Shown here one piece after another: positions 8,532 to 30,532 of a DNA stretch of 49,245 nucleotides (positions within the stretch are counted from its first letter, which is position 1; each line of letters starts with the position of its first letter). The notes below the pieces were generated by a model that made no database searches, was not told where the DNA came from, and saw only the letters and a program-made list of their open reading frames with translations. Both the position numbers and the translations under genes were made by a program. Source of the stretch: Deinococcota bacterium (lineage in GTDB: Bacteria > Deinococcota > Deinococci > Deinococcales > Trueperaceae); the NCBI GenBank assembly GCA_963170125.1, contig CAUJFI010000065.1, positions 1-49,245 on the forward strand, in the 5' to 3' direction.

Positions 8532-9248
8532 ATGACGGACCTGCGCGGACCGGCGGTGGTCGTCACGGCCGACGGTTCCCGTACGCTCGCCTCTCCTACC
8601 GGGGAGGCGTACAAGTCGCTCCGCGGCGCGATCAGCGAGGCGAGGAGCGTCTACCTCGAGGGGAGCGGCGTCGGCGACCGCCTCGCCGCCGGCTCCGCGG
8701 CGGACGTGCTGGAGGTCGGCTTCGGTACCGGCCTCAACTTCCTCGTGAGCGCGACCGCCGCGGTGAAGAGCGGCGCCGCGCTGCGCTACCGGGCGCTGGA
8801 GCTGGCGCCGCCGAGCGCCGCGACGCTCAGCGAGCTGCGCTACGCCGAGCTGCTGGCCCCGTCCCGACTGCCCGGGGCCCTGATCGCCTGGCGCGCGGGT
8901 CTCGGTATGAGCGCGCCGGCGGGCTGGAACGTCTTCGAGCACGACCGCGTCACGCTGGAGCTGTTCGTCGGCGACGCCCTGTCCTCGGCGTGGGAGGCCG
9001 GTGATCTCCGCCAGGTCGACGCCGTGTACCACGACTCCTTCGGCCCGGCCAACGCGCCCGGGCTCTGGTCTGGGGCGTTCCTCGCCCGCCTGGCCCGCCT
9101 GCTCAGGCCCGACGGCCGGCTCGTCAGCTTCTGCGTCGCCGGAGCCGTGCGCCGGGCGCTCGCGGCCGAGGGCCTGCAAGTCAAGAAGGCCGCGGGGCCG
9201 GCCGGTGGCAAGCGCGAGGTCCTGGTGGCACGCAGGCCGGCCGCATGA
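8532..9248 (+). CDS. mnmD: tRNA mnm5s2U34 methyltransferase (MnmD type, MnmC N-terminal domain)
   Basis: This SAM-dependent methyltransferase corresponds to the N-terminal half of E. coli MnmC (DUF752), which methylates nm5s2U34 in the tRNA wobble position. The SAM site is DVLEVGFGTGLNFL. The conserved YHDSFGPANAPGLW (D-x-F-xP) loop and the N-terminal SPTGEAYKSL segment are present. ATG 8532 is chosen because GGGTGAG lies 7 nt upstream; an in-frame start at 8478 would add 18 residues. A TAGCAT -10 box sits at 8509-8514. The stop overlaps the next start (ATGA). Confidence 0.88.
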   Translation: MTDLRGPAVVVTADGSRTLASPTGEAYKSLRGAISEARSVYLEGSGVGDRLAAGSAADVLEVGFGTGLNFLVSATAAVKSGAALRYRALELAPPSAATLSELRYAELLAPSRLPGALIAWRAGLGMSAPAGWNVFEHDRVTLELFVGDALSSAWEAGDLRQVDAVYHDSFGPANAPGLWSGAFLARLARLLRPDGRLVSFCVAGAVRRALAAEGLQVKKAAGPAGGKREVLVARRPAA

Positions 9249-10339
9249 GTAGGCTAGGCAGCGAAGGGACCGCGCATTCGGCCGTGGACGTGCTCGTCAT
9301 CGGCGGCGGGATAGCGGGCGCCACCCTGCACTACCACCTCGCGCGCTCAGGGGTGAGCTCGCTGCTCGTGGATGCCGGAGCAGACGGCGCCTCCGGCGCC
9401 TCCAGCGTCCCTGCCGCGCTCCTCAACCCAAACCGCGGCCGCAGCGGCCGGTCATCGCTCGCCGACCAGGAAGGCCTGGCCGCCTTCTGGCGCCTAACGA
9501 ACGAGCTCGTAGCGGCCGGCCTCGATCCGGGCGCGATGCGCAGCGGCGTGCTACGCGTCGCGGACAACCCGCGCCAGGCGCGCGCCTGGCGGCGGCTGCC
9601 CGACACGACGTGGCTCGAGCCGGGCGCGGTCGACCCCGTCTACCACGCCCCGTTCGGCGCCATGCTCGTCGAGCGCGGCGGGTGGGTACGCCCGGCGCTG
9701 CTCCTCAGCGCGCTCGCGGCGGGTGCGGCGGCGGCCGGCGGCCGGACGCTGCGCGGCGTCGACGTCGGCGGCCTGAGCGAGACCCCCACGGGTGTGAACG
9801 CGACGACCGACGGCGGCACCATCGTCGCGCGCAAGGCGGTCCTCTGCTCGGGCGCCGCGAGGCGCCCCGGCCTCAGGCAGCCGGGGTTCGAGGCGGTCTG
9901 GGGCGAGGCCCTGGTCCTCAGCGCACCTGTCGCGGCCCCCTACCCCCTCGCCGGCGCGGTCGTCGCGGCGTTCGGGACGGTCGGCGCCACTGGCATGGCC
10001 GAGGTCTACGTCACGGGCGGCCACTCCGCCACCCCGGCCCCCATCTGGCCTCAGGAGCCAGCGTCGGAACCCGTTGGCGGCCCAGCGGGCGCCCTCGTGC
10101 GCGGCGCGGAGCACCCTCTCCTGGCCGCGTTGGCCTGGCAGGTGCCGGGCGTGGCCGGCGCGCGCGTCGTGCGGCACTGGGTGGGGGCGCGGGCCAAGCG
10201 CCCATCCGGCGAGCCGGTGGCGCGGCGCCTGACGCGCAACGTCCACGTGCTCGGGGCGCTGGGAGGGCGCGGCTTCCTGCGCGCCGCCACGCTCGCCGAG
10301 GCGCTCGGCCGACGCCTCGTCGCGGAGCTGGCCCGCTAA
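9245..10339 (+). CDS. mnmC: FAD-dependent cmnm5s2U34 oxidoreductase (MnmC C-terminal domain as a separate protein)
   Basis: This 364-aa FAD oxidoreductase of the DAO family opens with VLVIGGGIAGATLHYHLA and has a GASGASSVPAALLNPNRGR segment, the MnmC C-terminal signature (the G-x-PQGGLYP/NP region). It would convert cmnm5s2U34 to nm5s2U34, the substrate of the upstream methyltransferase. The ATGA overlap with mnmD indicates tight coupling. The two genes together replace the fused bifunctional MnmC of enterobacteria. The stop overlaps the SulP gene on the other strand by 4 nt. Confidence 0.85.
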   Translation: MSRLGSEGTAHSAVDVLVIGGGIAGATLHYHLARSGVSSLLVDAGADGASGASSVPAALLNPNRGRSGRSSLADQEGLAAFWRLTNELVAAGLDPGAMRSGVLRVADNPRQARAWRRLPDTTWLEPGAVDPVYHAPFGAMLVERGGWVRPALLLSALAAGAAAAGGRTLRGVDVGGLSETPTGVNATTDGGTIVARKAVLCSGAARRPGLRQPGFEAVWGEALVLSAPVAAPYPLAGAVVAAFGTVGATGMAEVYVTGGHSATPAPIWPQEPASEPVGGPAGALVRGAEHPLLAALAWQVPGVAGARVVRHWVGARAKRPSGEPVARRLTRNVHVLGALGGRGFLRAATLAEALGRRLVAELAR

Positions 10340-12618
10340 CGCTCCAAAGCGTCGACGGCCGCCATCAGGTGCAGCACACGACCGGCCATGAGCCGCGCCA
10401 CCTCACGGTGCAGGTCGGCGGCCAGTCCCGGGGCCTCGGTCGTGAGCCGCGCCAGGGCCGCTTCGCCAAGCACCAGCAGCGTCGACTCGCGGTCGGCCCG
10501 TACCGTGGCGCTGCGCGACCCACCGCGGTAGAACCCGAGCTCGCCGAGCAGCCCGCCGGAGCGCAAGGTCTCCAGGCGCGTGGCGGCGCCGTCGCTGGCC
10601 TCCGCCACCGCCGTCATCTGGCCCTCGACGAGGAAGTAGAGCTCGTCAGCCTTGTCGCCCTTGTGGATGAGCACGTCGCCGGCGCGCAGCTCCCGGCGGG
10701 TCAGGTACGGCAGCAGGTCGGCGAAGTCGAAGCCGGCGCCGGAGTAGTAGGCGACGGCGTCGGCCTCGGTGCCGCGCACGTCGCGCTTCGCGTCCCAGCG
10801 CTCGAGCAGCCGCTCCTCGGCGTGCTCGAGCGCGGCGTCGAGTTTGGCAAAACGGGGCGCCGCTCCGGCCTCCCCACCGCCCTGCCGCCGTCGGCCGAGG
10901 CGCCGGTAGAGGCGCTCGGGCACGGCGCTGAGCAGCAGCTCGAACCCGGAACTCTCGCCGAGCTTGAAGACATCCTCGATCGTCGCCAGGCCGGTGGCGT
11001 CGACCCCCGACACGCGCGAGAAGTCGAGGACGACCGACCGCACGGGCGGGCCGGAGCGCACGCGGCGCTCCAGGCGTTCGAGCAGCGCCGTGGCGGTCCC
11101 GAAGAACAGGAACCCCTGGAGCTGCACGACCATGAGCTCGCCGCCGTGCTCGGCAAGGCGCGCCAACTCCGCCGCGCCGCGCGTGACGCGCGAGCGCAGG
11201 TCGGCGCCGCCCAGCGCGTACCTGACGGCGTCCGTGCGGCTCGAGCTGATCACGAAGAGGACGACGGTGAGGACGAGGCCGACCCCGACGCCGGGCAGCA
11301 CCCCTGCGACGACGATGACCGCGAGGATGGCGACCACCACGAGGTACTCGCTGAACGGCAGGTCGAAGAGCGCCTCGTAGAGCCACTGGTGGAGGAACTT
11401 GAGACCGAAGTACGCCAGGAGGCCACCCACCACCGCCTTCGGCACCAGCGCCACGACCCCGGCGCCGAACAGGAGGCACGCGGCCATGGCGCCGACCGCG
11501 ACGATGGGAGCGTAGCGTGAGCCGGTGCCGGCGGTGAAGTTGAACGTCGAGAAGCTCAGGCTCTGGTAGCCGGGGGAGCCGCCGAGCCCGCCGGCCAGCA
11601 GGTTGCCTAGGCCTGCGGCGCGGAGCTCGCGGTTGAGGTCGCCCTTGCGCCCGGTCACTCGCTCGACGCCGATGGCGTTCAGCAGGAGCGCGATCAGGGA
11701 GATGAGTACCGCGGACGCGATGGTGGGCAGGTGGTCGAGCACGACGTCCCACCGCACCGCCTGCAGCTCCGAGGCCCTGAACGGGGCGAGCAGCGAGCCG
11801 GCGGGGAAGGGTCCGAGCAGCAGGCCCCGAGCGCGCCAGCCGTCCACGTCGCCGCCCGTGACCGCCATGACGACGTAGAAGCCGACGGTGACGACCAGCA
11901 TCGTGGCGGGCCAGACGAGGAAGTGACGGTAGAGGCGCGTGAGCAGCAACAGGGTGACGGCGAGCGCCACGCCCGGCACCCACAGCACGAGCCTGTCGGC
12001 CGCGAAGAGGTCGGTGAGGTAATGCAGGCTGGGCCTGACACCGGACATGACGCCGACCCCGCCCGTGAGGAGGAGCCAGCCCGTGCCGGCCATGAAGCCG
12101 CCGAGCACCGGGTAGGGCAAGTAGCGCACGAGGCTGCCGAGCCGGAAGAGGCCGAACAGCATGAACACGACCCCGGTCGCCAGGGCCGTGCAGGCTGCGA
12201 TGGCGACCATGGTGAAGAACCGCTCCTCGCCGCCGAGCGGGGCTCCAGCCACCAGTTGCGTGCCGAGCGTCGCCGCCAGAGCGCCGAGCACCGCGGCGGG
12301 CGCGTCCTGGGCGTTGGCGAATATCCCCGGCAACGACGTGAGGAGCGTGATCACGAGAGGGAGCATCGCCCCGCCGAGCAGCACGAGCCCTATGCCGCGC
12401 CCGAGGTACTCGGGCTGGCCGCCATACAGGAGCGCGGCCAGCGAGATGTCCATGGTGATCGCCAGGGCGCCGAGCACCAGGCCGACGCTCGTGTTCTGCA
12501 CGAGCCAGGCCACGGAGTGGGCACCCCCGACGCGGGAGCGCGCCTTACTTATCGGAGGCTCCGCCGCACCCACCTCCGAAGCCGGGAGGGACCCACTGCG
12601 CCGCACCGACCCAGGCAC
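10336..12618 (-). CDS. SulP anion transporter with C-terminal STAS and cyclic-nucleotide-binding domains
   Basis: This 760-aa membrane protein has three parts. Residues about 35-435 are the SulP/SLC26 permease with multiple hydrophobic helices, for example ITMDISLAALLYGG and the GLGGSPGYQSLSFSTFNF segment. Residues about 475-590 are a STAS domain (VVLDFSRVSGVDATGLATIE, with the conserved Ser-Gly-x-Asp loop). Residues about 630-745 are a Crp-like cNMP-binding domain. The nucleotide-binding cassette reads LGELGFYRGGSRSATVRA. Its Glu693 (ribose) and Arg702 (phosphate) are both present, with the 9-residue spacing seen in PKA. SulP substrates include sulfate, bicarbonate and dicarboxylates; which applies here cannot be told. 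The start is GTG 12618, 6 nt after the protease gene stop, so the two are probably one transcript. Alternative starts slightly downstream are possible. Confidence 0.88.
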   Translation of the reverse strand: MPGSVRRSGSLPASEVGAAEPPISKARSRVGGAHSVAWLVQNTSVGLVLGALAITMDISLAALLYGGQPEYLGRGIGLVLLGGAMLPLVITLLTSLPGIFANAQDAPAAVLGALAATLGTQLVAGAPLGGEERFFTMVAIAACTALATGVVFMLFGLFRLGSLVRYLPYPVLGGFMAGTGWLLLTGGVGVMSGVRPSLHYLTDLFAADRLVLWVPGVALAVTLLLLTRLYRHFLVWPATMLVVTVGFYVVMAVTGGDVDGWRARGLLLGPFPAGSLLAPFRASELQAVRWDVVLDHLPTIASAVLISLIALLLNAIGVERVTGRKGDLNRELRAAGLGNLLAGGLGGSPGYQSLSFSTFNFTAGTGSRYAPIVAVGAMAACLLFGAGVVALVPKAVVGGLLAYFGLKFLHQWLYEALFDLPFSEYLVVVAILAVIVVAGVLPGVGVGLVLTVVLFVISSSRTDAVRYALGGADLRSRVTRGAAELARLAEHGGELMVVQLQGFLFFGTATALLERLERRVRSGPPVRSVVLDFSRVSGVDATGLATIEDVFKLGESSGFELLLSAVPERLYRRLGRRRQGGGEAGAAPRFAKLDAALEHAEERLLERWDAKRDVRGTEADAVAYYSGAGFDFADLLPYLTRRELRAGDVLIHKGDKADELYFLVEGQMTAVAEASDGAATRLETLRSGGLLGELGFYRGGSRSATVRADRESTLLVLGEAALARLTTEAPGLAADLHREVARLMAGRVLHLMAAVDALER

Positions 12619-12624
12619 AGGGAC

Positions 12625-14538
12625 TCAGTAGTAGCAGCCGGCGGCCAGCGCGCTGTTCGGCCCGTAGAACGGGACCATGCCCGTTCCGCCGTAGGCCAGC
12701 GCCGGATGCTCTCCGGGGGCCGGAGCGCCGCAGACGGGCACGTTGCTCATGGCGTCGATGCCGAGGAAGAGGCTCACTATGGGCGCCGCGAACGACGTGC
12801 CGGCGTACGCGACCGTGCTATCGCCGCCGGACGCCAGCTCGAAGAGCCCGCCGGGCGCGGCCACCTCCGCCAGGTTCGAGTAGCTCGCCCCGGCGTACCC
12901 GCCGGCCGTGGCCGCGAGGGACCCGACGCTCACGACGTTCGCCGCCGCGGCCGGGTAGAGCGGGTAGCTGTTGCCGTAGTTGCCCGATGAAGCGACCAGG
13001 AACAGGCTCTGCGCGATCGCGAGGCCGGGGTAGTCAGCGTCGAGGCCAGTGCCGTCGCAGTACTGACCGTTCATGCTCGGCAGTGGGCAGGCGGCGAAGG
13101 CGAGGAGCGGGTCGCTGCCAAGGTCGACGGGCGTGGAGACGAGCTCGTCGAGGTCGCCGACGTACTGCGCCCCCACGTGGTTGCTCGCCGCCAGCGCCGT
13201 CAGGTAGTCCTGGAAGGTCGCGAGCCCCGCCGTGGAGTTGTAGTCCTGAAGCACGCTGCACGGCACGACGGCGAAGCTCATGTTCACGACCATCGCGCTG
13301 GCGCCCTCGACCTCGCCGTAATGCAGCATGGCGGCCTGAAGCCTGCCGGCGACGCTGTCTGTGTTGAGCTGCCCTACGTCGACGGCCTGGACGAAGAACT
13401 CGGTGCCAAGGTAGCCGTACTCGTAGTAAGGCTGGCCGTCGAAGGCGCCTGAGGAGATCAGGTAGACGTCGTTGGCGGTGCCGTGGTCCATCGACTCCAG
13501 GACCGCGAGGGTGTGATGCAAGACGAGCGTGCCGTGCGAGAACTGCCCCGTCAGGTTAGCGAGGTCCGTCCCCGGCTGGAGGGCGGCCGCAGGCAACTCG
13601 TAGCCGTTGCTGAAATCGTCGACGATGAAGATGACGGACCGCTTGCTGTTCCCGGCCCCGAGGAGTTGCCCGTACAGCTCGTCGCCCACTTGTGCCGGCG
13701 TGACGAGCGTGCCGTTGAAGCTGCTCGTCTGCCCCTGGAACAGCCCGCCGACGGCGCCGACGGCCTGCAGGCCGGCCCCGACGGCCTGCAGGCCCTGCCC
13801 CGGGCGCGTGAGGAACGACGCGGCGCAGTTGCCGGCCTGCTCGGCGAACGGGCCGCCCGAGAGGCTCGTCAGCTCACCCAGCGTGGCCGGCGGCGGGCCG
13901 TCGACGGGCGGGGTGGCCTGCGCCAGGACCTTGAAGCCGATGGGCAGCACGCCGAGCACGGATGGGACGGGCACGAAGCCGTCCGGCACAGCCTGACGAC
14001 CGAGGAAGAGGCCCCTGAAGGCGAAGATGTCGAGGTAGCCGAGGCAGGCCTGCGACGCGCCGTTGCAGACAGGCGCGTCGCCTGCACCCGCCGCGCGGAT
14101 CTCGGCCCGCAGGTACTGACTCGCCTTGCGATCGATCGTGGTGCCGAGCGCCAGCCAGATGGTGGCGTAGGTGTCGCGTTGGGCGACGATCGTGCGTTTG
14201 GCGGTCGACAGCGTGCCGCTAAGCGCCGCGCCGCTCGCGACGCCCGTCGCGGGATCGACGTTGAAGAACTTGATCTCGAGGTCGAGGCCGCCGACGAAGT
14301 CGCCTGAAGGGAACTTCTTGGCGAGCGGGGGGAGGAACCGCACCCGCAACGCCTCGTTCACCGGCAGGTTCAGGGCCTCCAGCTCGGCGGCCTGGTCGAA
14401 CTCCGGGTCGGCGGCGGGGGTGGGTGGCGGCGTCGTCTGGCACGACGCGAGGCCGAGCACCAAGGCAAGGCCGAGCAGGCGCCCGCCTAGACGCCAGTCC
14501 CGCATACGACGACGCTTCACATGGTCCGCACCAGCCAT
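12625..14538 (-). CDS. S8 (subtilisin) family serine protease, predicted lipoprotein
   Basis: This is a 637-aa secreted protease. ATG 14538 is chosen for GGAGG 6 nt upstream; translation then gives a basic N-terminus, a hydrophobic core and the lipobox LASC with Cys about residue 33. The catalytic set is visible in order: Asp in VIFIVDDFSNG (about 307), His in FSHGTLVL (about 335), oxyanion Asn in SSGNYGN (about 519) and Ser in YAGTSFAAPIVSLF (about 581). The Asp-to-His gap is short and the His-to-Ser gap long. There are several paired cysteines. A small in-frame repeat (LQAVGA twice) lies near 13755-13800. A likely promoter (TAGATAAT) lies about 65 nt upstream, within the 139-nt gap to the cyclase gene. 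It is followed at once by the SulP gene. Confidence 0.85.
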   Translation of the reverse strand: MAGADHVKRRRMRDWRLGGRLLGLALVLGLASCQTTPPPTPAADPEFDQAAELEALNLPVNEALRVRFLPPLAKKFPSGDFVGGLDLEIKFFNVDPATGVASGAALSGTLSTAKRTIVAQRDTYATIWLALGTTIDRKASQYLRAEIRAAGAGDAPVCNGASQACLGYLDIFAFRGLFLGRQAVPDGFVPVPSVLGVLPIGFKVLAQATPPVDGPPPATLGELTSLSGGPFAEQAGNCAASFLTRPGQGLQAVGAGLQAVGAVGGLFQGQTSSFNGTLVTPAQVGDELYGQLLGAGNSKRSVIFIVDDFSNGYELPAAALQPGTDLANLTGQFSHGTLVLHHTLAVLESMDHGTANDVYLISSGAFDGQPYYEYGYLGTEFFVQAVDVGQLNTDSVAGRLQAAMLHYGEVEGASAMVVNMSFAVVPCSVLQDYNSTAGLATFQDYLTALAASNHVGAQYVGDLDELVSTPVDLGSDPLLAFAACPLPSMNGQYCDGTGLDADYPGLAIAQSLFLVASSGNYGNSYPLYPAAAANVVSVGSLAATAGGYAGASYSNLAEVAAPGGLFELASGGDSTVAYAGTSFAAPIVSLFLGIDAMSNVPVCGAPAPGEHPALAYGGTGMVPFYGPNSALAAGCYY

Positions 14539-14677
14539 CGAGGGCCTCCAGCCGACAGGGCGGCAGGGGCCACGCACGCGTTATCCAACTACCCCGGTCG
14601 TCCGCCAGATTATCTAGCGCTTCAAGATACAGCCTCGCGAAGGCGCGCACGACGCAGACGCCACCCCGGCGCCCAAC

Positions 14678-17600
14678 CTAGCCGTGCAGAGCCCAGGCGA
14701 CCACGTCGGCGAGCGGCCTGTCGCCGAGCCGGGCCGGCACCGCGGTGTGCTCGCCGCGCGCCTTGCCGACGGCCAGCGCCGCGCGAACGTCCTCGTCCAC
14801 CGCGGCGCCGATGCGCCCTAGGAGCAGCTCCGCGGCGCGCGCCATGCGGGCGGCGGCCGTGCCCTCCGCCACCACGCTCGCCAACCCGGCCAGCGCCGCT
14901 GCGGTCTCGCGGCCGTTGTCGATGGCGCTCGCGAACCCGACGCTCTCCAAGTAGAGCCGTGTGGCCTCCTCGGTCGCGCCGAGGCGCGCCACCAACCCCG
15001 CGAGGTTGTTGAGCGAGACGGCCAAGCCGAGCCGGTCGCCGAGCTCGCGCCTGGACGCCAGGCTCCGCTCGTAGAGCTCCCGCGCGCCGGCCAGGTCGCC
15101 GCGTTCGGCGACCATATAGCCGAGGTTGTTGAGCGCGACGGCGACCCCAGCCACGTCGCCGAGGCGCTCCCTGATCTGGAGGCTCTCGGTGAACAGTTCC
15201 TCCGCGCGCGCCACGTCGCCGGCGTTGGCCGAGACGATCGCCAGGTTGTTGAGCGCGTTCGCGACGCCGTACTCGTCGCGCGCTTCCCGGCGCAGCTCCA
15301 GACTGGCGAGGAAAGCGGCCTCCGCCGCCGCGGCCTCGCCGCGGTAGAGGTGGATGTTCGCCGTGCCGTGCAGCGCCCTGGCCGCCGCGCGCGCGTCGCC
15401 CGCCGCGCGCGCCAACGCCACCGCCTCCGCGAGGAGCGCCTCCGCCTCGTCGTAGCTGCCCAGGTGCCACAGCACGTTGCCACCCAACGCCAGGAGGACG
15501 CGGGTCAGCTCCGCGCCGTCGCCGAGCTCCCGACATAGGCCCGCGGCGGCCTCGAGCCGGGCCTTGGCGCGACCGTGGTCGCCCTGGCGCTCGTAGAGCT
15601 CGCCGAGGAGCCGCAGCGCGGCGGCCTCACTCGGCCTCGCTCCCACGGCCGCCGCCAGCGCCGCCGCCGCCTCGAGGTGCTCCTCCGCGGCGCGGTAGGC
15701 GCCCACGAAGGTCATGACCTCGCCGAGCTCGATCAGCGTCGGCAGGCGTTCGGCGCCTTCCTGGAGCGCCAGGAGTCTCTCGAAGTAGTCGATGGCGGCG
15801 GCGTTCGCGTACGCGGCCTTGGCGGCGGCGCCGGCCGCCCCCAGGTAGTGGCCCGCCTTGGCCGCGTCGTCACCGAGCGCGAAGTGATACGCGAGCAGGT
15901 CGAGGTTGGGCTCCGAGGCGCTGGCAACGCGCCGCTCGATGAACCGGCCGAGCCGCGTATGCAGTAGCAGCCTCGTGGCGTGCGAGAGGCTGTCGTAGGT
16001 GACGTCGCGTGTGATGGTGTGGTTGAAGGCGTGCGTCGGCGGCTCGGCCGCGACGCGCTCGGTCAAGCCGGCCTGGTCGGTGGCCGCGAAGGCGCTCGCG
16101 GCGGCCCCGTCGTCCACGGCCCGGTCGTCCACGGCCGCCTGACAGCCGCTCACCCAACCGACCCGGAACTGCTTCCCCACGACGCTCGCCACCTTGAGGC
16201 TGAGGAGCGCGCCTAGCTCCAAGCGGTCGAGGCGCCCGAGGATGAGGCTATGCAAGCTAGTGGGTAGCTCCGCTAGCTCGGTCGGGCCGTGGCGCCCACC
16301 GGCCAGCGCCGCCCGCTGCAGCAGATCGGTCAGCAGCTCGCCCAGGTAGAAGGGGTTGCCGCCGGAGCGCTCCACGATCCGCGCCGCCAGCTCGTCACTC
16401 ACCTCGAAGGCCTGCCCGGCGCCGGCCAACCGCGCGGCCACCACTGCCAGCGCCGCCGCCTCGTCGAGCGGCCCCAGCCGCAGGACCTGCGCACCCGACA
16501 CGTCGCCCGCGGCCCGCTCCCGGGCGTCGTCGAGCGGCCTGGCCGACGTGAGCACCAGCGCCGGCAGGGTGGGCACCGTCCGGGCCAGCTCGGCGAGCAG
16601 CTCGGCGGAGGCGGGGTCGAGCCAGTGGAGGTCTTCCAGCAGGAGCACGAGGGTGCGGCCTTGCCGCGCCGTGTCGCGCGCCGCGTGACGGAAGACGTTC
16701 AGCAGCAGGGCGAGCCGCCGGGCGCTACGCTCCTCGGCGTCGGACGCCACGGAGCGCTCGGCTGACGGAGCGGGGAGGTCGAGGAGCGGAGCCAACAGCT
16801 CGGCCTGGTCGACGAGCACGGGGTCGACGGCGGCCAAGGCGGCCCTGAGACGCCGCGACCGCTCCTCGGCGGAGCCCGTAGCCTCCACGGCGAGGAGCTG
16901 CCGGAACACGCCCTTCCACAACTGGTAAGGCGCCGTGCGCCCGAAGGCCTGGCAGGCGCCGACGACGACGCGCACGCCCTCGGCGCCCTCGAGCGCGCGG
17001 CCGAGCAGCTCCGACTTGCCCATCCCGGCCTCAGCCACGACCTGGATCACCCCGCCGCGCCCGGCCGCCGCCGCCGCGATGCCGGCGGAGATGGCCGCGA
17101 GCTCCGCGGCCCGACCCACCGGCGAGCGGCCGCTCGCCTCCGCCCGTCTGCGGCGGGGGCCCGCCAGCCGGTCCGTGAGCTCGTAGGCCGCCACGGGCTC
17201 GGCGCTGCCCTTGACGACGACACCCTCGAGCCGCCGCAGGTCGAAGCCTTCGCCGAGCGCTTCCACGAAGGCCCCGCTGACGTAGATGCTCGCGTGCGGC
17301 GCGGCGCTCATCAGGCGCGCCGCTAAGTTCGTGCCGTGCCCGAGCGCGCCGTACGTGCGCCGCGCCGCCGAGCCGTACGCCCCCGTGCGGGCCGTCCCGT
17401 AACCAAGGCCGATCCTCAGCTCGTCGACGAACGGGAGTCCGAGCACGGCCTCGCGCAGGTCGAGGGCGGCGGCGGCGCAGCGGGCCACGTCGTCCTCGTG
17501 CGCCACGGGGGCACCGAACGCGGCGTAGAGGTACGTGCCCTTGTCGCCGGTGGTGAGCTGCAGCACGTCGCCGCCGTACTCCGTCACGCACTGCTGGACG

Positions 17601-18475
17601 CGGCGCACGAGCAGGTCGAGCTTCCCGCCAGCCGCCTCGTCGTGCGCCAAGTCGATGCCGGCGAAGGCGAGGAACAGCGCCGCAACCGGCCGCAGCTCAG
17701 TGAGGAAGTCCCCTCCACCGGCGCTCAGCCGTCTCTTCACCGTCGGCAGCAACCAGCGGCCGAGCTCGTGCTCACCAGGCATGGGCCGGTCAAGGGCGTG
17801 CTGGTCAAGGGCGTGCTGGTCGGGACCGAGCACCTTACCCACCGCCATAGCGCCGGCCGGCGCGGTCGCGTGCGCGAGCGGTCGCAGCTCCACCAGGTCG
17901 CCGACGGCCGACGCCACGGCGGCGCTGAGCACGACCTGGCCCTTGCCCGACGCGTTGTTGAGGGCCTCGAGTTCGGCCACCGGGTCGCCGGCGACCACGT
18001 CGAGCAGCTGCACCGCCTCGTCGCCCACCTTGAAGCGCCTCACCGCGCCGCTGGTGACGGCGACCTTGACGTCCAGGGCGATGGTCGTCGCGGTAGGCGC
18101 GCCACGTATGACGCTAGCGGCGAAGGGGGCCATGGCGGCCTGCATGGCGACGGCGCACGCCACGGCGGCTTGGCCGTCGTCGGCCGGGAACCAGCAGGTG
18201 ATGGCGTCGCCGGCGAAGCCTATGACGCTGCCCGAGCGGGCATGCACCGCGCCGATCAGCGCCTCGTACAGGCGGTTCAGGTAGACGGGGACTTCCTCAG
18301 CACCCCGCCGCGGGCCGAACAGCTCGGCCAGGGCGGTGGTCAGGGCGGTGAAGCCGGCAACGTCGGCGAACAGCACGGCGCCCCGGCACGCCTCGGGTAC
18401 GGCGGGCCCGCCCCCCAGCTCGGCCAAGCGGTCCTCAGGCAGGTAGGCGCCCAGCGCGCCCAGCAGGTCCGTCAG
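14678..18475 (-). CDS. Giant class III nucleotide cyclase: two cyclase domains, AAA ATPase, TPR array
   Basis: This is a 1265-aa protein numbered from a CTG start. Cyclase domain 1 (about 30-215) has the two metal-binding aspartates in LFADVAGFT (Asp38) and FAGDAITCWF (Asp90) but no Asn/Arg catalytic pair. Cyclase domain 2 (about 262-435) lacks the metal Asp in its first strand (ALFLAFAGID) but has GDKGTYLYAAFG (Lys312) and TNLAARL (Asn383, Arg387). A linker leads to an AAA/STAND-type ATPase with Walker A EAGMGKS (482-488) and a LLLEDLHWLD Walker B. The C-terminal roughly 450 residues are TPR repeats, including several near-identical ALNNLA(x)V units. The order C1-C2-ATPase-helical repeats equals that of mammalian soluble adenylyl cyclase. 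No ATG, GTG or TTG fits the N-terminus: homology requires a start at or above CTG 18475, which overlaps the TGA of the 129-aa gene. The product is probably cAMP, from the Lys. Confidence 0.85.
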   Translation of the reverse strand: MTDLLGALGAYLPEDRLAELGGGPAVPEACRGAVLFADVAGFTALTTALAELFGPRRGAEEVPVYLNRLYEALIGAVHARSGSVIGFAGDAITCWFPADDGQAAVACAVAMQAAMAPFAASVIRGAPTATTIALDVKVAVTSGAVRRFKVGDEAVQLLDVVAGDPVAELEALNNASGKGQVVLSAAVASAVGDLVELRPLAHATAPAGAMAVGKVLGPDQHALDQHALDRPMPGEHELGRWLLPTVKRRLSAGGGDFLTELRPVAALFLAFAGIDLAHDEAAGGKLDLLVRRVQQCVTEYGGDVLQLTTGDKGTYLYAAFGAPVAHEDDVARCAAAALDLREAVLGLPFVDELRIGLGYGTARTGAYGSAARRTYGALGHGTNLAARLMSAAPHASIYVSGAFVEALGEGFDLRRLEGVVVKGSAEPVAAYELTDRLAGPRRRRAEASGRSPVGRAAELAAISAGIAAAAAGRGGVIQVVAEAGMGKSELLGRALEGAEGVRVVVGACQAFGRTAPYQLWKGVFRQLLAVEATGSAEERSRRLRAALAAVDPVLVDQAELLAPLLDLPAPSAERSVASDAEERSARRLALLLNVFRHAARDTARQGRTLVLLLEDLHWLDPASAELLAELARTVPTLPALVLTSARPLDDARERAAGDVSGAQVLRLGPLDEAAALAVVAARLAGAGQAFEVSDELAARIVERSGGNPFYLGELLTDLLQRAALAGGRHGPTELAELPTSLHSLILGRLDRLELGALLSLKVASVVGKQFRVGWVSGCQAAVDDRAVDDGAAASAFAATDQAGLTERVAAEPPTHAFNHTITRDVTYDSLSHATRLLLHTRLGRFIERRVASASEPNLDLLAYHFALGDDAAKAGHYLGAAGAAAKAAYANAAAIDYFERLLALQEGAERLPTLIELGEVMTFVGAYRAAEEHLEAAAALAAAVGARPSEAAALRLLGELYERQGDHGRAKARLEAAAGLCRELGDGAELTRVLLALGGNVLWHLGSYDEAEALLAEAVALARAAGDARAAARALHGTANIHLYRGEAAAAEAAFLASLELRREARDEYGVANALNNLAIVSANAGDVARAEELFTESLQIRERLGDVAGVAVALNNLGYMVAERGDLAGARELYERSLASRRELGDRLGLAVSLNNLAGLVARLGATEEATRLYLESVGFASAIDNGRETAAALAGLASVVAEGTAAARMARAAELLLGRIGAAVDEDVRAALAVGKARGEHTAVPARLGDRPLADVVAWALHG

Positions 18476-18861
18476 GCTACCGCCACCGCGAACAGCTCGT
18501 CCGCCAGGCGGAAGAGCGCCTCCTTGGTGAAGCGCCGCGGCCCCTCGCTCAGGCCGGAGCCGTCCTTCGCCAGCGCCAGCTTCCGGTACACGTGCGACTC
18601 GAAGGGGTGCAGCACGACCTCCTTGAAGACGGAGGCGCGCTGGCTGGCGGACGCGAGCAGGATGGGCTCGTCGTGATCGTTGGAGAGGCTCGCCGAGAGG
18701 ATGGTGGTCGGGAGGTCGTAGGGGCGGGCCATGCGGTAGATGTAGTCGGTGAAGTCCGCCTGCTTCACGAACCGGACGCCCTCGTGCTCGACCGCGTACT
18801 CGCGCATCCACTCGAGCATGTCGGCCCAGGCCTGGTAGAACGCCATGTCCTTCTCTGTCAT
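18472..18861 (-). CDS. Unknown 129-aa protein coupled to the cyclase gene
   Basis: No family is recognised. The protein is soluble and mixed alpha/beta, with a Trp/Glu-rich N-terminal helix (FYQAWADMLEWMREY), then a YIYRMARPYDLPTTIL segment and a DHDEPILLASASQ segment. It has one Cys-free chain and no signal peptide. Its TGA stop overlaps the proposed CTG start of the cyclase gene (CTGA), so it is very likely co-translated with it and may be its partner or regulator. A TAGAAT -10 box lies 6 nt before the ATG. Confidence 0.75.
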   Translation of the reverse strand: MTEKDMAFYQAWADMLEWMREYAVEHEGVRFVKQADFTDYIYRMARPYDLPTTILSASLSNDHDEPILLASASQRASVFKEVVLHPFESHVYRKLALAKDGSGLSEGPRRFTKEALFRLADELFAVAVA

Positions 18862-27724: not shown

Positions 27725-30532
27725 TTAGAAGGTGACGGTGTAGCTGATCTTGAACGCCTGGGCGGACGAGGCGACACCGTTGTTGTCGTTCTCGTAGGTG
27801 CCGTAGGCGAACTCGAGGTCGTAGTAGTTCCAGATGAGTTCGTAGCCGGAGACGGACTGCGTGCCGGTGCCGTTGACGTCACCAGCGCTGATGTCCGTGG
27901 CCCCGTCACCAGCGCCGCGAGTGTTCGTCGCGTTGTTGATGTTGGTGCCGGTCCAGCTGCCGTACTTGGCGGTGAGCTTGCTGTGGTCGAAGACGAACTC
28001 GTTCAGGACGAGGCCAACGCTCCACTGCAGCTCGCTCGCCGTGTAGACGGCGGCATCGCTGTGATCGGTCGTGCGGTAGTTGACCGCGGCGATGAGGCTG
28101 GGCTTGGTGTAGACGTCGAGCGGCGTGGTGGAGAGACCCGTGCCAACGCGGAGCGTGGTGGTGTCATCCGTGCCAGCATCGGCGTCGTTGACCATGCGGT
28201 ATCCGACGTACGGGGTCAGCGAGAGGATCGAGACGTTGAGGGCGTAGTCGGCATCGACGAACAGGGTCGTCTTGCTGAAGTCCGCCTCGGTCTGCGAGTA
28301 GCCCGCCGAGATGTTCAGGCCCTTGATGAGGGCGTTGGCGGCGGCGCCGTCGTGCTTGAGCGTGACGCCGAAGCCGGTGTTGTAGTTGTTGTCGCGCTCG
28401 ATGTCGGCGCCGGCGAGGGCCACAGCGGCCTCGCTCGCATCGACGAACGTGCGGAGGTCATCGACGGTCGTACCGTTGACGGAGGCCGAGTGGTACCAGC
28501 CGCCGAGGCTGAAGCCCGCGAACAAGTTGGCCGAGGCGTCGACGCCGAAGGACATGGCGCTGTCACCAGCGACCGTGCCGTAGGAGTCGAAGTACGCGCT
28601 CAGGTCGACGATGAACAGGCTGAGGCCAGCGTTCACGCCGAAGCCGCTCTGGTCTTCCGCGAACGGGAAGCCCGAGGCGTCAGCGCCGAGGTCGTAGCCG
28701 TTGGCAGTCCAGGCATCGCTGATGTCGCGGTAGTTGGCGCCAAGGCTCGAGAGGATGGGGATGCCGGCGGTATCGACGTCGAGCGTGGCGTAGAGGACCG
28801 ACTCGGCGGTCGCGCCGCCGGAGCCGTTGGCCCACTCGAAGCCGAGGTCGAAGATGGACAGCGAGAGGCTGCCGTCGACGCCCCAGACCGTGATCTGCTG
28901 GTTGTCGGCGAGGTAGTCGTCCTTGTCGCCAGCGCGTTCGGCGTACTGGGCGAAGCTACCGCCGAGCGTCAGGCCCTCGAGGGGGCTGACCGTGAGGCGG
29001 GCGCCGCGCAGGTAGTTGCCGTACCACTCCTGGTTGTAGTTCACGTCCGTGGAGTCGTTCCTGCTGACGTAGACGGCCGTGATGCCAGGGTTGAGGAAGG
29101 CGAGGAAGCTCGGGGCGCCGATGGTAGCGACGAAGCCCGGGTCATCCGTGCCGACGACGTACGGGGTGAAGCTCGTCTCGACGTTCGTGCCGAACGCGAA
29201 GGTAAGCGGCACGGCGCCGATGGGTTCGAACGTCGTCATGAAGTTGCGGATCTCGAACCAGTTGAGCAGGGGTTCGGAGCCGGAGACGATGGGGCCCGTG
29301 ACGCGCTGGGAATCCATGGCGATCGAAAGCACGCCGCTGAAGCTGTTGAGCTTGTTCGGGCTGCCCTCACCATCGAAGCCGAACTTCGCAGCGAAGCTCA
29401 GGTTCAAGACGGCGGTGGCCGCACCCGGGGTGTGCTCGATGTCGTGACGATCCTGGGCGACTTCGCCGACTTCCGTGCGGTAGTTGCGGGTGCCCGAGCG
29501 GTCGCCGTCGAGTTCAGCTGCGCCGGACGAGAAGACCGACGCGCCCATGTTGCGCAGGCTGTTCAGGCCGTAAGCGCGGTCGACGTCGAACTCCTGGCCG
29601 ATGACGCGGCCGACGAAGTACGTGACCGAGATGCTGCCGGAGATCCCGAGGGGGTTCTCTTCGAGCGCGGCGACGCGACCCTGCAGGTCCGCGATGGCGG
29701 CGTTCTGGGCGGCATCCGAAGCTTCCAGGGCCGAGACGCGGTCGCGAATGGCGATCTGGTTGCTGCGGATGAGGAGGACGAACTCGCGGATGTTCGCGAT
29801 GTCCGAGCGGTTGCGCTCGATGGCACTGTTCACGGCCGAGAGATCGACCGGGGCGGCGCCGGCGGACGAGGAGCCACCCTTGAGGCCGGCCACGTCAGCC
29901 TGGAGGAGCTGAAGGGCGCGGTTGAGGGCAGCGATGTCGTCGGCGTTCTGGCGACCGAGCGTGTTGGCCTGGTTGGCCAGGCTGTAAGCGGCGTCGGCGC
30001 GCGCGGCAGCGGCGTCGGCCTGGGCCTGCGCCGTGTCGAGGGCGACACGCTGCGAGGCGATCTGGTTCTGCAGATCGCGGAGGACCGCCGGATCGACGCC
30101 ACCGTTGTCAGCGGCGAGGGCCGCTTCCAGGTCGTCGAGGCGAGCGGAGTTGGCGGTCACGTCGTCGGAGAGGCCAGCGATGGCGCTCTCGGCGGCGGAC
30201 AGCCTCACGCCTTGGGCAGCGACGTCAGAGGCGAGCTCTTGCACGGCGTTGCGCAGCGAGTCGACGTCAGCCTGCGTGAGGGCGAGCGCCGAGTTGAGGT
30301 TGTCATTGATGACGTCAAGCAGGCGGCTGACAACGAGAGCGGCTTGGTAACGCGTGAAGGCTTCGTTGCCACGGAAGGTCCCGTCGGGGAAGCCGATGAC
30401 GATGCCGAGGTCGGAGATGCGGTCGACGGCGTCGCCCGCCCAGTGGTTCGCCGGGATGTCCGGGAACGAGTACTGAGCGAAGGCGCCGCTGGCCGTGATC
30501 GCCGCCAGGAGCGTGATGAGTAGCTTCTTCAT
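27725..30532 (-). CDS. slpA: SlpA-like outer-membrane protein: SLH domain, coiled coil, beta-barrel
   Basis: This 935-aa protein has a Sec signal peptide (KKLLITLLAAITASGAFAQ, cleavage after AFA). An SLH domain follows (YSFPDIPANHWAGDAVDRIS, GFPDGTFRGNEAFTRYQAA), then a long coiled coil (about 75-290, many Leu/Ala heptads). About 600 residues of alternating beta strands end in Phe (KISYTVTF), as in outer-membrane barrels. This is the architecture of the Deinococcus SlpA and Thermus SLH porins, which bind pyruvylated cell-wall polymer through SLH and link the outer membrane to peptidoglycan. The ATG is preceded by AAGGGG. Codons are those of a highly expressed gene. Confidence 0.92.
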   Translation of the reverse strand: MKKLLITLLAAITASGAFAQYSFPDIPANHWAGDAVDRISDLGIVIGFPDGTFRGNEAFTRYQAALVVSRLLDVINDNLNSALALTQADVDSLRNAVQELASDVAAQGVRLSAAESAIAGLSDDVTANSARLDDLEAALAADNGGVDPAVLRDLQNQIASQRVALDTAQAQADAAAARADAAYSLANQANTLGRQNADDIAALNRALQLLQADVAGLKGGSSSAGAAPVDLSAVNSAIERNRSDIANIREFVLLIRSNQIAIRDRVSALEASDAAQNAAIADLQGRVAALEENPLGISGSISVTYFVGRVIGQEFDVDRAYGLNSLRNMGASVFSSGAAELDGDRSGTRNYRTEVGEVAQDRHDIEHTPGAATAVLNLSFAAKFGFDGEGSPNKLNSFSGVLSIAMDSQRVTGPIVSGSEPLLNWFEIRNFMTTFEPIGAVPLTFAFGTNVETSFTPYVVGTDDPGFVATIGAPSFLAFLNPGITAVYVSRNDSTDVNYNQEWYGNYLRGARLTVSPLEGLTLGGSFAQYAERAGDKDDYLADNQQITVWGVDGSLSLSIFDLGFEWANGSGGATAESVLYATLDVDTAGIPILSSLGANYRDISDAWTANGYDLGADASGFPFAEDQSGFGVNAGLSLFIVDLSAYFDSYGTVAGDSAMSFGVDASANLFAGFSLGGWYHSASVNGTTVDDLRTFVDASEAAVALAGADIERDNNYNTGFGVTLKHDGAAANALIKGLNISAGYSQTEADFSKTTLFVDADYALNVSILSLTPYVGYRMVNDADAGTDDTTTLRVGTGLSTTPLDVYTKPSLIAAVNYRTTDHSDAAVYTASELQWSVGLVLNEFVFDHSKLTAKYGSWTGTNINNATNTRGAGDGATDISAGDVNGTGTQSVSGYELIWNYYDLEFAYGTYENDNNGVASSAQAFKISYTVTF

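What the first reader, a model, noticed from the sequence alone, without database searches (positions are those of the whole stretch)
10336..18861. Possible cAMP-to-anion-transport circuit: sAC-like cyclase close to a SulP transporter with a cNMP domain
Four same-strand genes in a row: a 129-aa protein, the giant cyclase, an S8 lipoprotein protease and SulP-STAS-cNMP. The transporter's pocket LGELGFYRGGSRSATVRA keeps the Glu and Arg that hold cyclic nucleotides in CRP and PKA, with PKA-like spacing. A local cyclase making the ligand for a local transporter would be a self-contained regulatory unit controlling sulfate or bicarbonate uptake. SLC26/SulP proteins and sAC are functionally linked in animals; a bacterial gene cluster of this kind is not one I know. 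There are at least two promoters (18873 and about 14600), so they need not be one operon.
Basis: partly seen in the sequence, partly recalled or inferred. Interest (0 to 1): 0.85.

Follow-up and report, generated by a model that had tools for sequence, protein, structure and literature searches.

The report
Travelling cyclase–protease–transporter gene unit
Some Trueperaceae bacteria carry three genes side by side (a relative of the animal soluble adenylyl cyclase, a predicted secreted-type protease and a transporter-like protein with a cyclic-nucleotide-binding domain) in the same order at two different chromosomal places, and they are predicted to form a circuit in which the cyclase would make the signal that likely gates the neighbouring transporter.

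Summary
The 129-aa gene is the respiratory subunit Nqo15 and is not part of the unit. The other three genes are real: a tandem sAC-like cyclase with AAA/STAND ATPase and TPRs (CYC), an S8 lipoprotein protease, and SulP-STAS-CNBD. Their order CYC-S8-SulP was read directly in 4 genomes of 2 genera. In the window's genus the unit sits between Nqo15 and a DAO-family gene, a junction intact in 5 of 6 relatives examined; one of these carries the unit elsewhere. Linked carriers form one clade in which the phosphate-binding Glu and Arg are kept in 29 of 29 rows, against 10 of 15 in the sister clade and 69 of 82 others. The cyclase fold is closest to human sAC and its metal and transition-state residues are invariant, so a cyclic-nucleotide-to-carrier circuit is the best reading. 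The sulfate/bicarbonate part fails: both sAC bicarbonate residues are lost, as is the TM8 carboxylate of BicA and SLC26Dg. The base-selecting pair is Gln-Gly, so cAMP versus cGMP is open. Coupling and substrate are untested. New variant of a known kind; nearest analogue: sAC-SLC9C1 of sperm.

The parts
14678..18475 (-). CYC: tandem class III (sAC-like) cyclase + AAA_16/STAND ATPase + TPR; start codon inferred (CTG overlapping Nqo15 TGA); the mechanical ORF runs to 18811
12625..14538 (-). S8 (subtilase-like) protease with lipobox LASC; triad D320/H348/S595 plus N533 in P0002 numbering; start ATG as in database entry P0245 (longest ORF begins at 14577)
10336..12618 (-). SulP (SLC26-fold carrier)-STAS-CNBD; 6 nt after the S8 stop
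10444..10698 (-). cNMP-binding domain of the carrier (phosphate-binding E693, R702)
17177..18385 (-). Cyclase catalytic pair: C1-like part with metal Asp150/Asp202, C2-like part with Asn495/Arg499
18472..18861 (-). Nqo15, complex I accessory subunit; border of the inserted unit, not part of it
9245..10339 (+). DAO-family FAD oxidoreductase, other border; its stop overlaps the SulP stop

Best explanation
The three genes for an sAC-like cyclase, a predicted S8 lipoprotein protease and a SulP-STAS-CNBD carrier, which stand in the same order at two different chromosomal sites in two genera, likely work as a self-contained circuit in which the cyclase would make a cyclic nucleotide that binds the carrier's own CNBD and gates its transport. 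Shown here: gene order, two locations, an intact insertion point in relatives, co-variation of the three proteins, conserved catalytic and ligand-pocket residues; folds are predicted. Inferred: the TPR/STAND part senses a signal and switches the cyclase; the nucleotide (cAMP or cGMP) binds at E693/R702; this changes the transport rate of the SLC26-fold domain through STAS. Also inferred, and weaker: the exported S8 protease supplies the substrate, a small organic product of protein breakdown (amino acid or dicarboxylate) rather than sulfate or bicarbonate.
Against: No binding, activity or transport data. The genome has a second class III cyclase and six other CNBD proteins, so the nucleotide need not be private. 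Base-selecting K and T of sAC are Q and G in 43 of 43, so the product may not be cAMP. E693/R702 are also common in unlinked SulP-CNBDs (69 of 82), and the five sister-clade losses fall in two subclades (G086; the G075 group), so they are few independent events. Linkage beyond four genomes rests on equal contig lengths, not on read gene order. SulP-CNBD also occurs in 7 of 11 full-length genomes without this unit. An external protease has no obvious place in a purely cytoplasmic circuit.
Confidence: 0.55

Rival explanations
1. The three genes travel together and share expression, but the carrier's CNBD is structural or constitutive, as proposed for the RmlC-like domain of yeast Vsb1, and the cyclase signals to CRP-type regulators instead.
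For: Vsb1, also SulP-STAS plus a C-terminal jelly roll, needs that domain but its authors find nucleotide or metal binding unlikely (PMC13160679, passages). Six other CNBD proteins are in the genome. Some SulP-CNBDs outside the unit have lost E or R.
Against: 29 of 29 linked carriers keep both phosphate-binding residues while 5 of 15 of the sister clade lost one or both, though in only two subclades.
Confidence: 0.2
2. A Pycsar-like or other anti-phage signalling module: a STAND/TPR sensor switches a cyclase whose nucleotide turns a CNBD membrane protein into a harmful pore.
For: PADLOC PycTIR/PycC models match the CNBD (best 6e-11) and the cyclase (best PycC 2.9e-10); TPR/STAND sensor; patchy presence.
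Against: The PADLOC matches cover single domains; S8 has no PADLOC match; the carrier has a full SLC26-type fold; Pfam scans of some window and G082 neighbours showed nothing that I recognise as defence. Neighbours were not scanned with PADLOC.
Confidence: 0.1
3. One reading: a bicarbonate-sensing sAC controls sulfate or bicarbonate uptake.
For: sAC fold and SLC26 fold.
Against: K95 and R176 equivalents are Gly/Ala and Glu/Asp/Ala in 43 of 43. The SLC26Dg E241/BicA TM8 Asp position is A310 in P0001 (27 of 29 Ala, 1 Gly, 1 Glu). A more canonical SulP lies elsewhere in the genome.
Confidence: 0.05
4. The unit is a nutrient-scavenging cassette held together by S8 and SulP alone; the cyclase is a passenger regulator of their expression.
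For: S8 and SulP are 6-8 nt apart while CYC-S8 is 125-172 nt by called starts; an unlinked relative sits in an oligopeptide ABC/M20 peptidase cluster.
Against: Pfam finds no DNA-binding domain in the cyclase, and it is linked to S8 at least as often as SulP is (11 and 8 shared lengths).
Confidence: 0.1

Closest known systems
sAC (ADCY10) with SLC9C1 of animal sperm
   Same: An sAC-type cyclase supplies the nucleotide for a binding site on a solute carrier; the two are reported to associate in sea urchin (PMC12867704, passages). SLC9C1 is gated by voltage and cyclic-nucleotide binding (PMC6052114, search listing with start of abstract).
   Different: The carrier is SLC26/SulP-like, not an SLC9 exchanger; no voltage sensor in Pfam; bacterial adjacent genes with a protease between; bicarbonate residues and the base-selecting pair differ.
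SulP-STAS-cNMP proteins of bacteria (NCBI 'SLC26A/SulP transporter family protein')
   Same: Same architecture, already widespread: listed homologues named as Trueperaceae, Chloroflexota and Actinomycetota, and cyanobacterial and rhizobial plasmids.
   Different: Linkage to this cyclase clade and S8 was seen only in one SulP clade. Among the four plasmid contexts with annotation (8 kb each side, gene tables incomplete) none lists an sAC-like cyclase; Ensifer has a CHASE2 cyclase about 2 kb away.
Yeast Vsb1 (vacuolar cationic amino acid importer)
   Same: SulP core, STAS and C-terminal jelly-roll domain (passages).
   Different: Its jelly roll is thought not to bind nucleotide; eukaryotic, vacuolar.
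Pycsar
   Same: Class III cyclase plus CNBD effector in one locus (recalled); domain-level PADLOC matches.
   Different: Carrier and extracytoplasmic protease instead of TIR/TM effector; no evidence of defence.
SLC26Dg / BicA
   Different: TM8 carboxylate absent; extra CNBD.

Membership tests
sAC-type class III cyclase | C1-C2 tandem of sAC fold | tested here: met
sAC-type class III cyclase | Two metal Asp in C1, Asn and Arg in C2 | tested here: met
   D150, D202, N495, R499 in 43 of 43
sAC-type class III cyclase | Bicarbonate site Lys95/Arg176 | tested here: not met
   G198 (42 G, 1 A) and E282 (36 E, 6 D, 1 A) of 43; most nonmammalian animal sACs also lose one or both (PMC12867704, passages)
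sAC-type class III cyclase | Adenine-selecting Lys334/Thr405 | tested here: not met
   Q418 and G488 in 43 of 43
sAC-type class III cyclase | Makes cAMP | not testable with these tools
   needs enzyme assay
SLC26/SulP | SLC26 transmembrane fold plus STAS | tested here: met
SulP, BicA or DauA as curated in NCBIfam | Reaches the curated cut-off | tested here: not met
   sulP 142.3 of 380 bits, BicA 76.5 of 880, DauA 92.3 of 614
cNMP-binding domain | Phosphate-binding cassette Glu and Arg | tested here: met
   E693, R702; 29 of 29 in clade
cNMP-binding domain | Binds cAMP or cGMP | not testable with these tools
   needs binding assay
S8 subtilase | Asp/His/Ser triad and oxyanion Asn | tested here: met
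   D320, H348, S595, N533 each in 84 of 84 aligned rows (47 and 37)
Pycsar | PycC cyclase and Pyc effector by family models | tested here: inconclusive
   domain-level matches only, no cut-offs given for PADLOC
SLC9C1-like regulated carrier | Carrier gated by cyclic nucleotide | not testable with these tools
   needs transport assay

The most novel reading that the evidence does not exclude
A mobile bacterial counterpart of the sperm sAC-SLC9C1 pair: a private cyclic nucleotide, perhaps cGMP or another non-cAMP nucleotide given the Gln-Gly base pocket, made by a STAND-switched sAC-like enzyme, gates an SLC26 carrier that imports products released by its own surface protease.
Probability: 0.3. 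Interest if true: 0.82.

Novelty: new variant of a known kind. Interest (0 to 1): 0.62.

Why it matters
If true, it would be a bacterial cyclic-nucleotide-gated solute carrier packaged with its own messenger source in a portable gene block. It would make testable how a CNBD controls an SLC26 carrier, and whether the animal sAC-carrier partnership reflects a recurring design. The open-paper searches made (listings, and passages of a few hits) showed no description of such a bacterial cluster; subscription papers were not searched.

Tried and rejected
Rejected: that the 129-aa gene belongs (it is Nqo15). Rejected as evidence: the family co-occurrence Fisher test (table 8/1/4/26, p 6e-5), because the trees place the unlinked Trueperaceae cyclases (G084, G098, G101, G102, G103; a second G101 copy) in a distant subfamily. 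The shared length 4500 (P0015/P0240) is probably chance: P0240 is only 37% identical. A clean empty site on the G082 side was not shown: in 2 of 6 loci the MFS gene lies beside the ABC pair, but on its other side. Borders: one search looked for repeats within each border only; between the two borders the longest exact shared words are 8 (direct) and 9 (inverted) bases, nothing notable. No mobile-element gene appeared in the neighbours that were scanned. The only terminator-like site was within chance (1 against 1.8 expected). Substrate from neighbours of unlinked relatives is mixed: peptide ABC/M20 (G101), NMT1 and ABC (G075), glutamine synthetase (G084), hydroxyaspartate ammonia-lyase (Acaryochloris), but also HypF/YjeF (G086), DNA polymerase/SRAP (G103) and an ion channel (G100). 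The literature search for a precedent of the Gln pair (Rv0386, recalled) gave no usable passage. PMC5541321 and PMC5131308 (passages) gave nothing on regulation of such carriers.

Full report
Where it is. The window is contig C65 of a 3.08-Mb, 91%-complete genome. A 93%-identical SulP locus in the named collection is from an uncultured Trueperaceae bacterium, so this is Deinococcota. G+C of the window is 72%, so long spurious ORFs abound and domain and homology evidence matter more than ORF length.

The four genes. All are on the minus strand. The 129-aa protein is Nqo15 of complex I (PF11497, 3.1e-44), matched in 34 of 39 family genomes. CYC has two class III cyclase domains, AAA_16 with a Walker A (AEAGMGKS) and TPRs. 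P0002 is an S8 protease with a lipobox; a simple pattern found lipobox-like N-termini in 61 of the 80 S8 homologues scanned (of 81 listed). P0001 is SulP-STAS-CNBD. The CYC ORF is inflated: its first 112 codons lie over Nqo15, and the likeliest start before the fold is a CTG overlapping the Nqo15 stop, kept in G092 and G094.

Conserved unit. Full-length SulP-STAS-CNBD matches occur in 11 of 111 genomes of the order (G089 in pieces besides), all 11 in this family. CYC-S8-SulP, in that order and on one strand, was read in the window's genome, G092 and G094 (same genus) and G082 (another genus; 49, 37 and 43% identical). In the first three the unit lies between Nqo15 and the DAO gene. That junction is uninterrupted in G091 and G093 (same genus, no unit), G098, G083 and G082; the sixth locus examined, G100, showed no DAO match. 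G082 carries the unit at another place beside ABC and MFS genes. So the three genes were gained, lost or moved together. The other 7 of the 11 genomes have the carrier without this unit beside it (contig ends limit some).

Linkage beyond held genomes. The protein database gives no gene order, but it lists the longest contig per protein. Among the 120 listed SulPs (of 208), 120 listed CYCs (of 1182) and 81 S8s (of 81), SulP-CYC share 8 lengths, SulP-S8 8 and CYC-S8 11; 200 shifted controls average 0.34-0.50 with a maximum of 3. Five lengths are shared by all three. Nine units' distance matrices correlate at 0.94 (CYC-S8), 0.92 (CYC-SulP) and 0.90 (S8-SulP), 0 of 5000 permutations as high; three of the nine are close relatives. 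In quick trees the linked SulPs fall in one clade of 31 rows (support 96; the G082 row is a long branch) and the linked cyclases in one of 43 (100); P0168, linked only to an S8 by length, lies just outside, and P0240 was not placed. A slower tree of 36 rows keeps the 13 clade members together (100/100). Unlinked Trueperaceae carriers G075, G086, G101 and G102 are in the sister clade; those of G084, G100 and G103 lie far out. Unlinked cyclases of G084, G098, G101, G102 and G103 are a distant subfamily.

CNBD. E693 and R702 are both present in 29 of 29 rows of the linked clade (fragments P0019 and P0094 dropped), 10 of 15 of the sister clade and 69 of 82 others (near-duplicates P0005, P0006, P0041 and P0047 dropped). 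The rows are not independent: the five sister-clade losses are G086 and the G075 group. The residue after the Arg is Ser or Thr in 27 of 29, which from general knowledge allows cAMP or cGMP. The genome has seven CNBD matches in all and one further class III cyclase.

Reading. The conserved, co-moving pairing of an active-looking sAC-type cyclase with a carrier whose nucleotide pocket is kept is best explained by direct gating. It resembles sAC and SLC9C1 in sperm, where the cyclase's product binds the carrier and the two associate (PMC12867704, passages). The role of the protease is unclear; my guess is that it provides substrate outside the cell. Ligand, coupling and substrate are inferred.

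Membership. The cyclase has sAC fold and catalytic residues but fails two sAC hallmarks (bicarbonate site, adenine-selecting pair), so I call it sAC-like, not an sAC. The carrier is an SLC26/SulP-fold protein with a CNBD, an architecture already widespread; what is new is the packaged unit. The open papers searched did not show such a bacterial cluster.

Noticed in passing
window 18472-18481: Cyclase appears to start with CTG overlapping the Nqo15 stop (CTGA), conserved in three genomes; in G082 the cyclase lies elsewhere without Nqo15.
   Followed up: partly
L068:5685-12171: In G082 a second cyclase/AAA/TPR gene (Pfam) stands in a row with what by eye are a response-regulator/thioredoxin-reductase-like protein and a CNBD-histidine kinase: another cyclase-CNBD pairing.
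   Followed up: partly
L034:934-8066: Unlinked SulP-CNBD in a row with an M20 peptidase and an oligopeptide-type ABC transporter (G101); G102 has two tandem SulP-CNBD genes beside a gene that resembles that M20 (L035).
   Followed up: partly
L098:7725-17857: Ensifer plasmid: SulP-CNBD near a CHASE2 cyclase and NHLP bacteriocin export genes; Shinella plasmid (L097) has SulP-CNBD beside C39/ABC export genes.
   Followed up: no
L073:10219-12447: G103 protein with, by eye, two CNBD-like repeats and a patatin-type domain (not scanned).
   Followed up: no
L014: A SulP match in G093 has two in-frame TGA codons in the search row.
   Followed up: no
window 27725-30532: S-layer protein SlpA-like gene (SLH and SlpA_C).
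   Followed up: no
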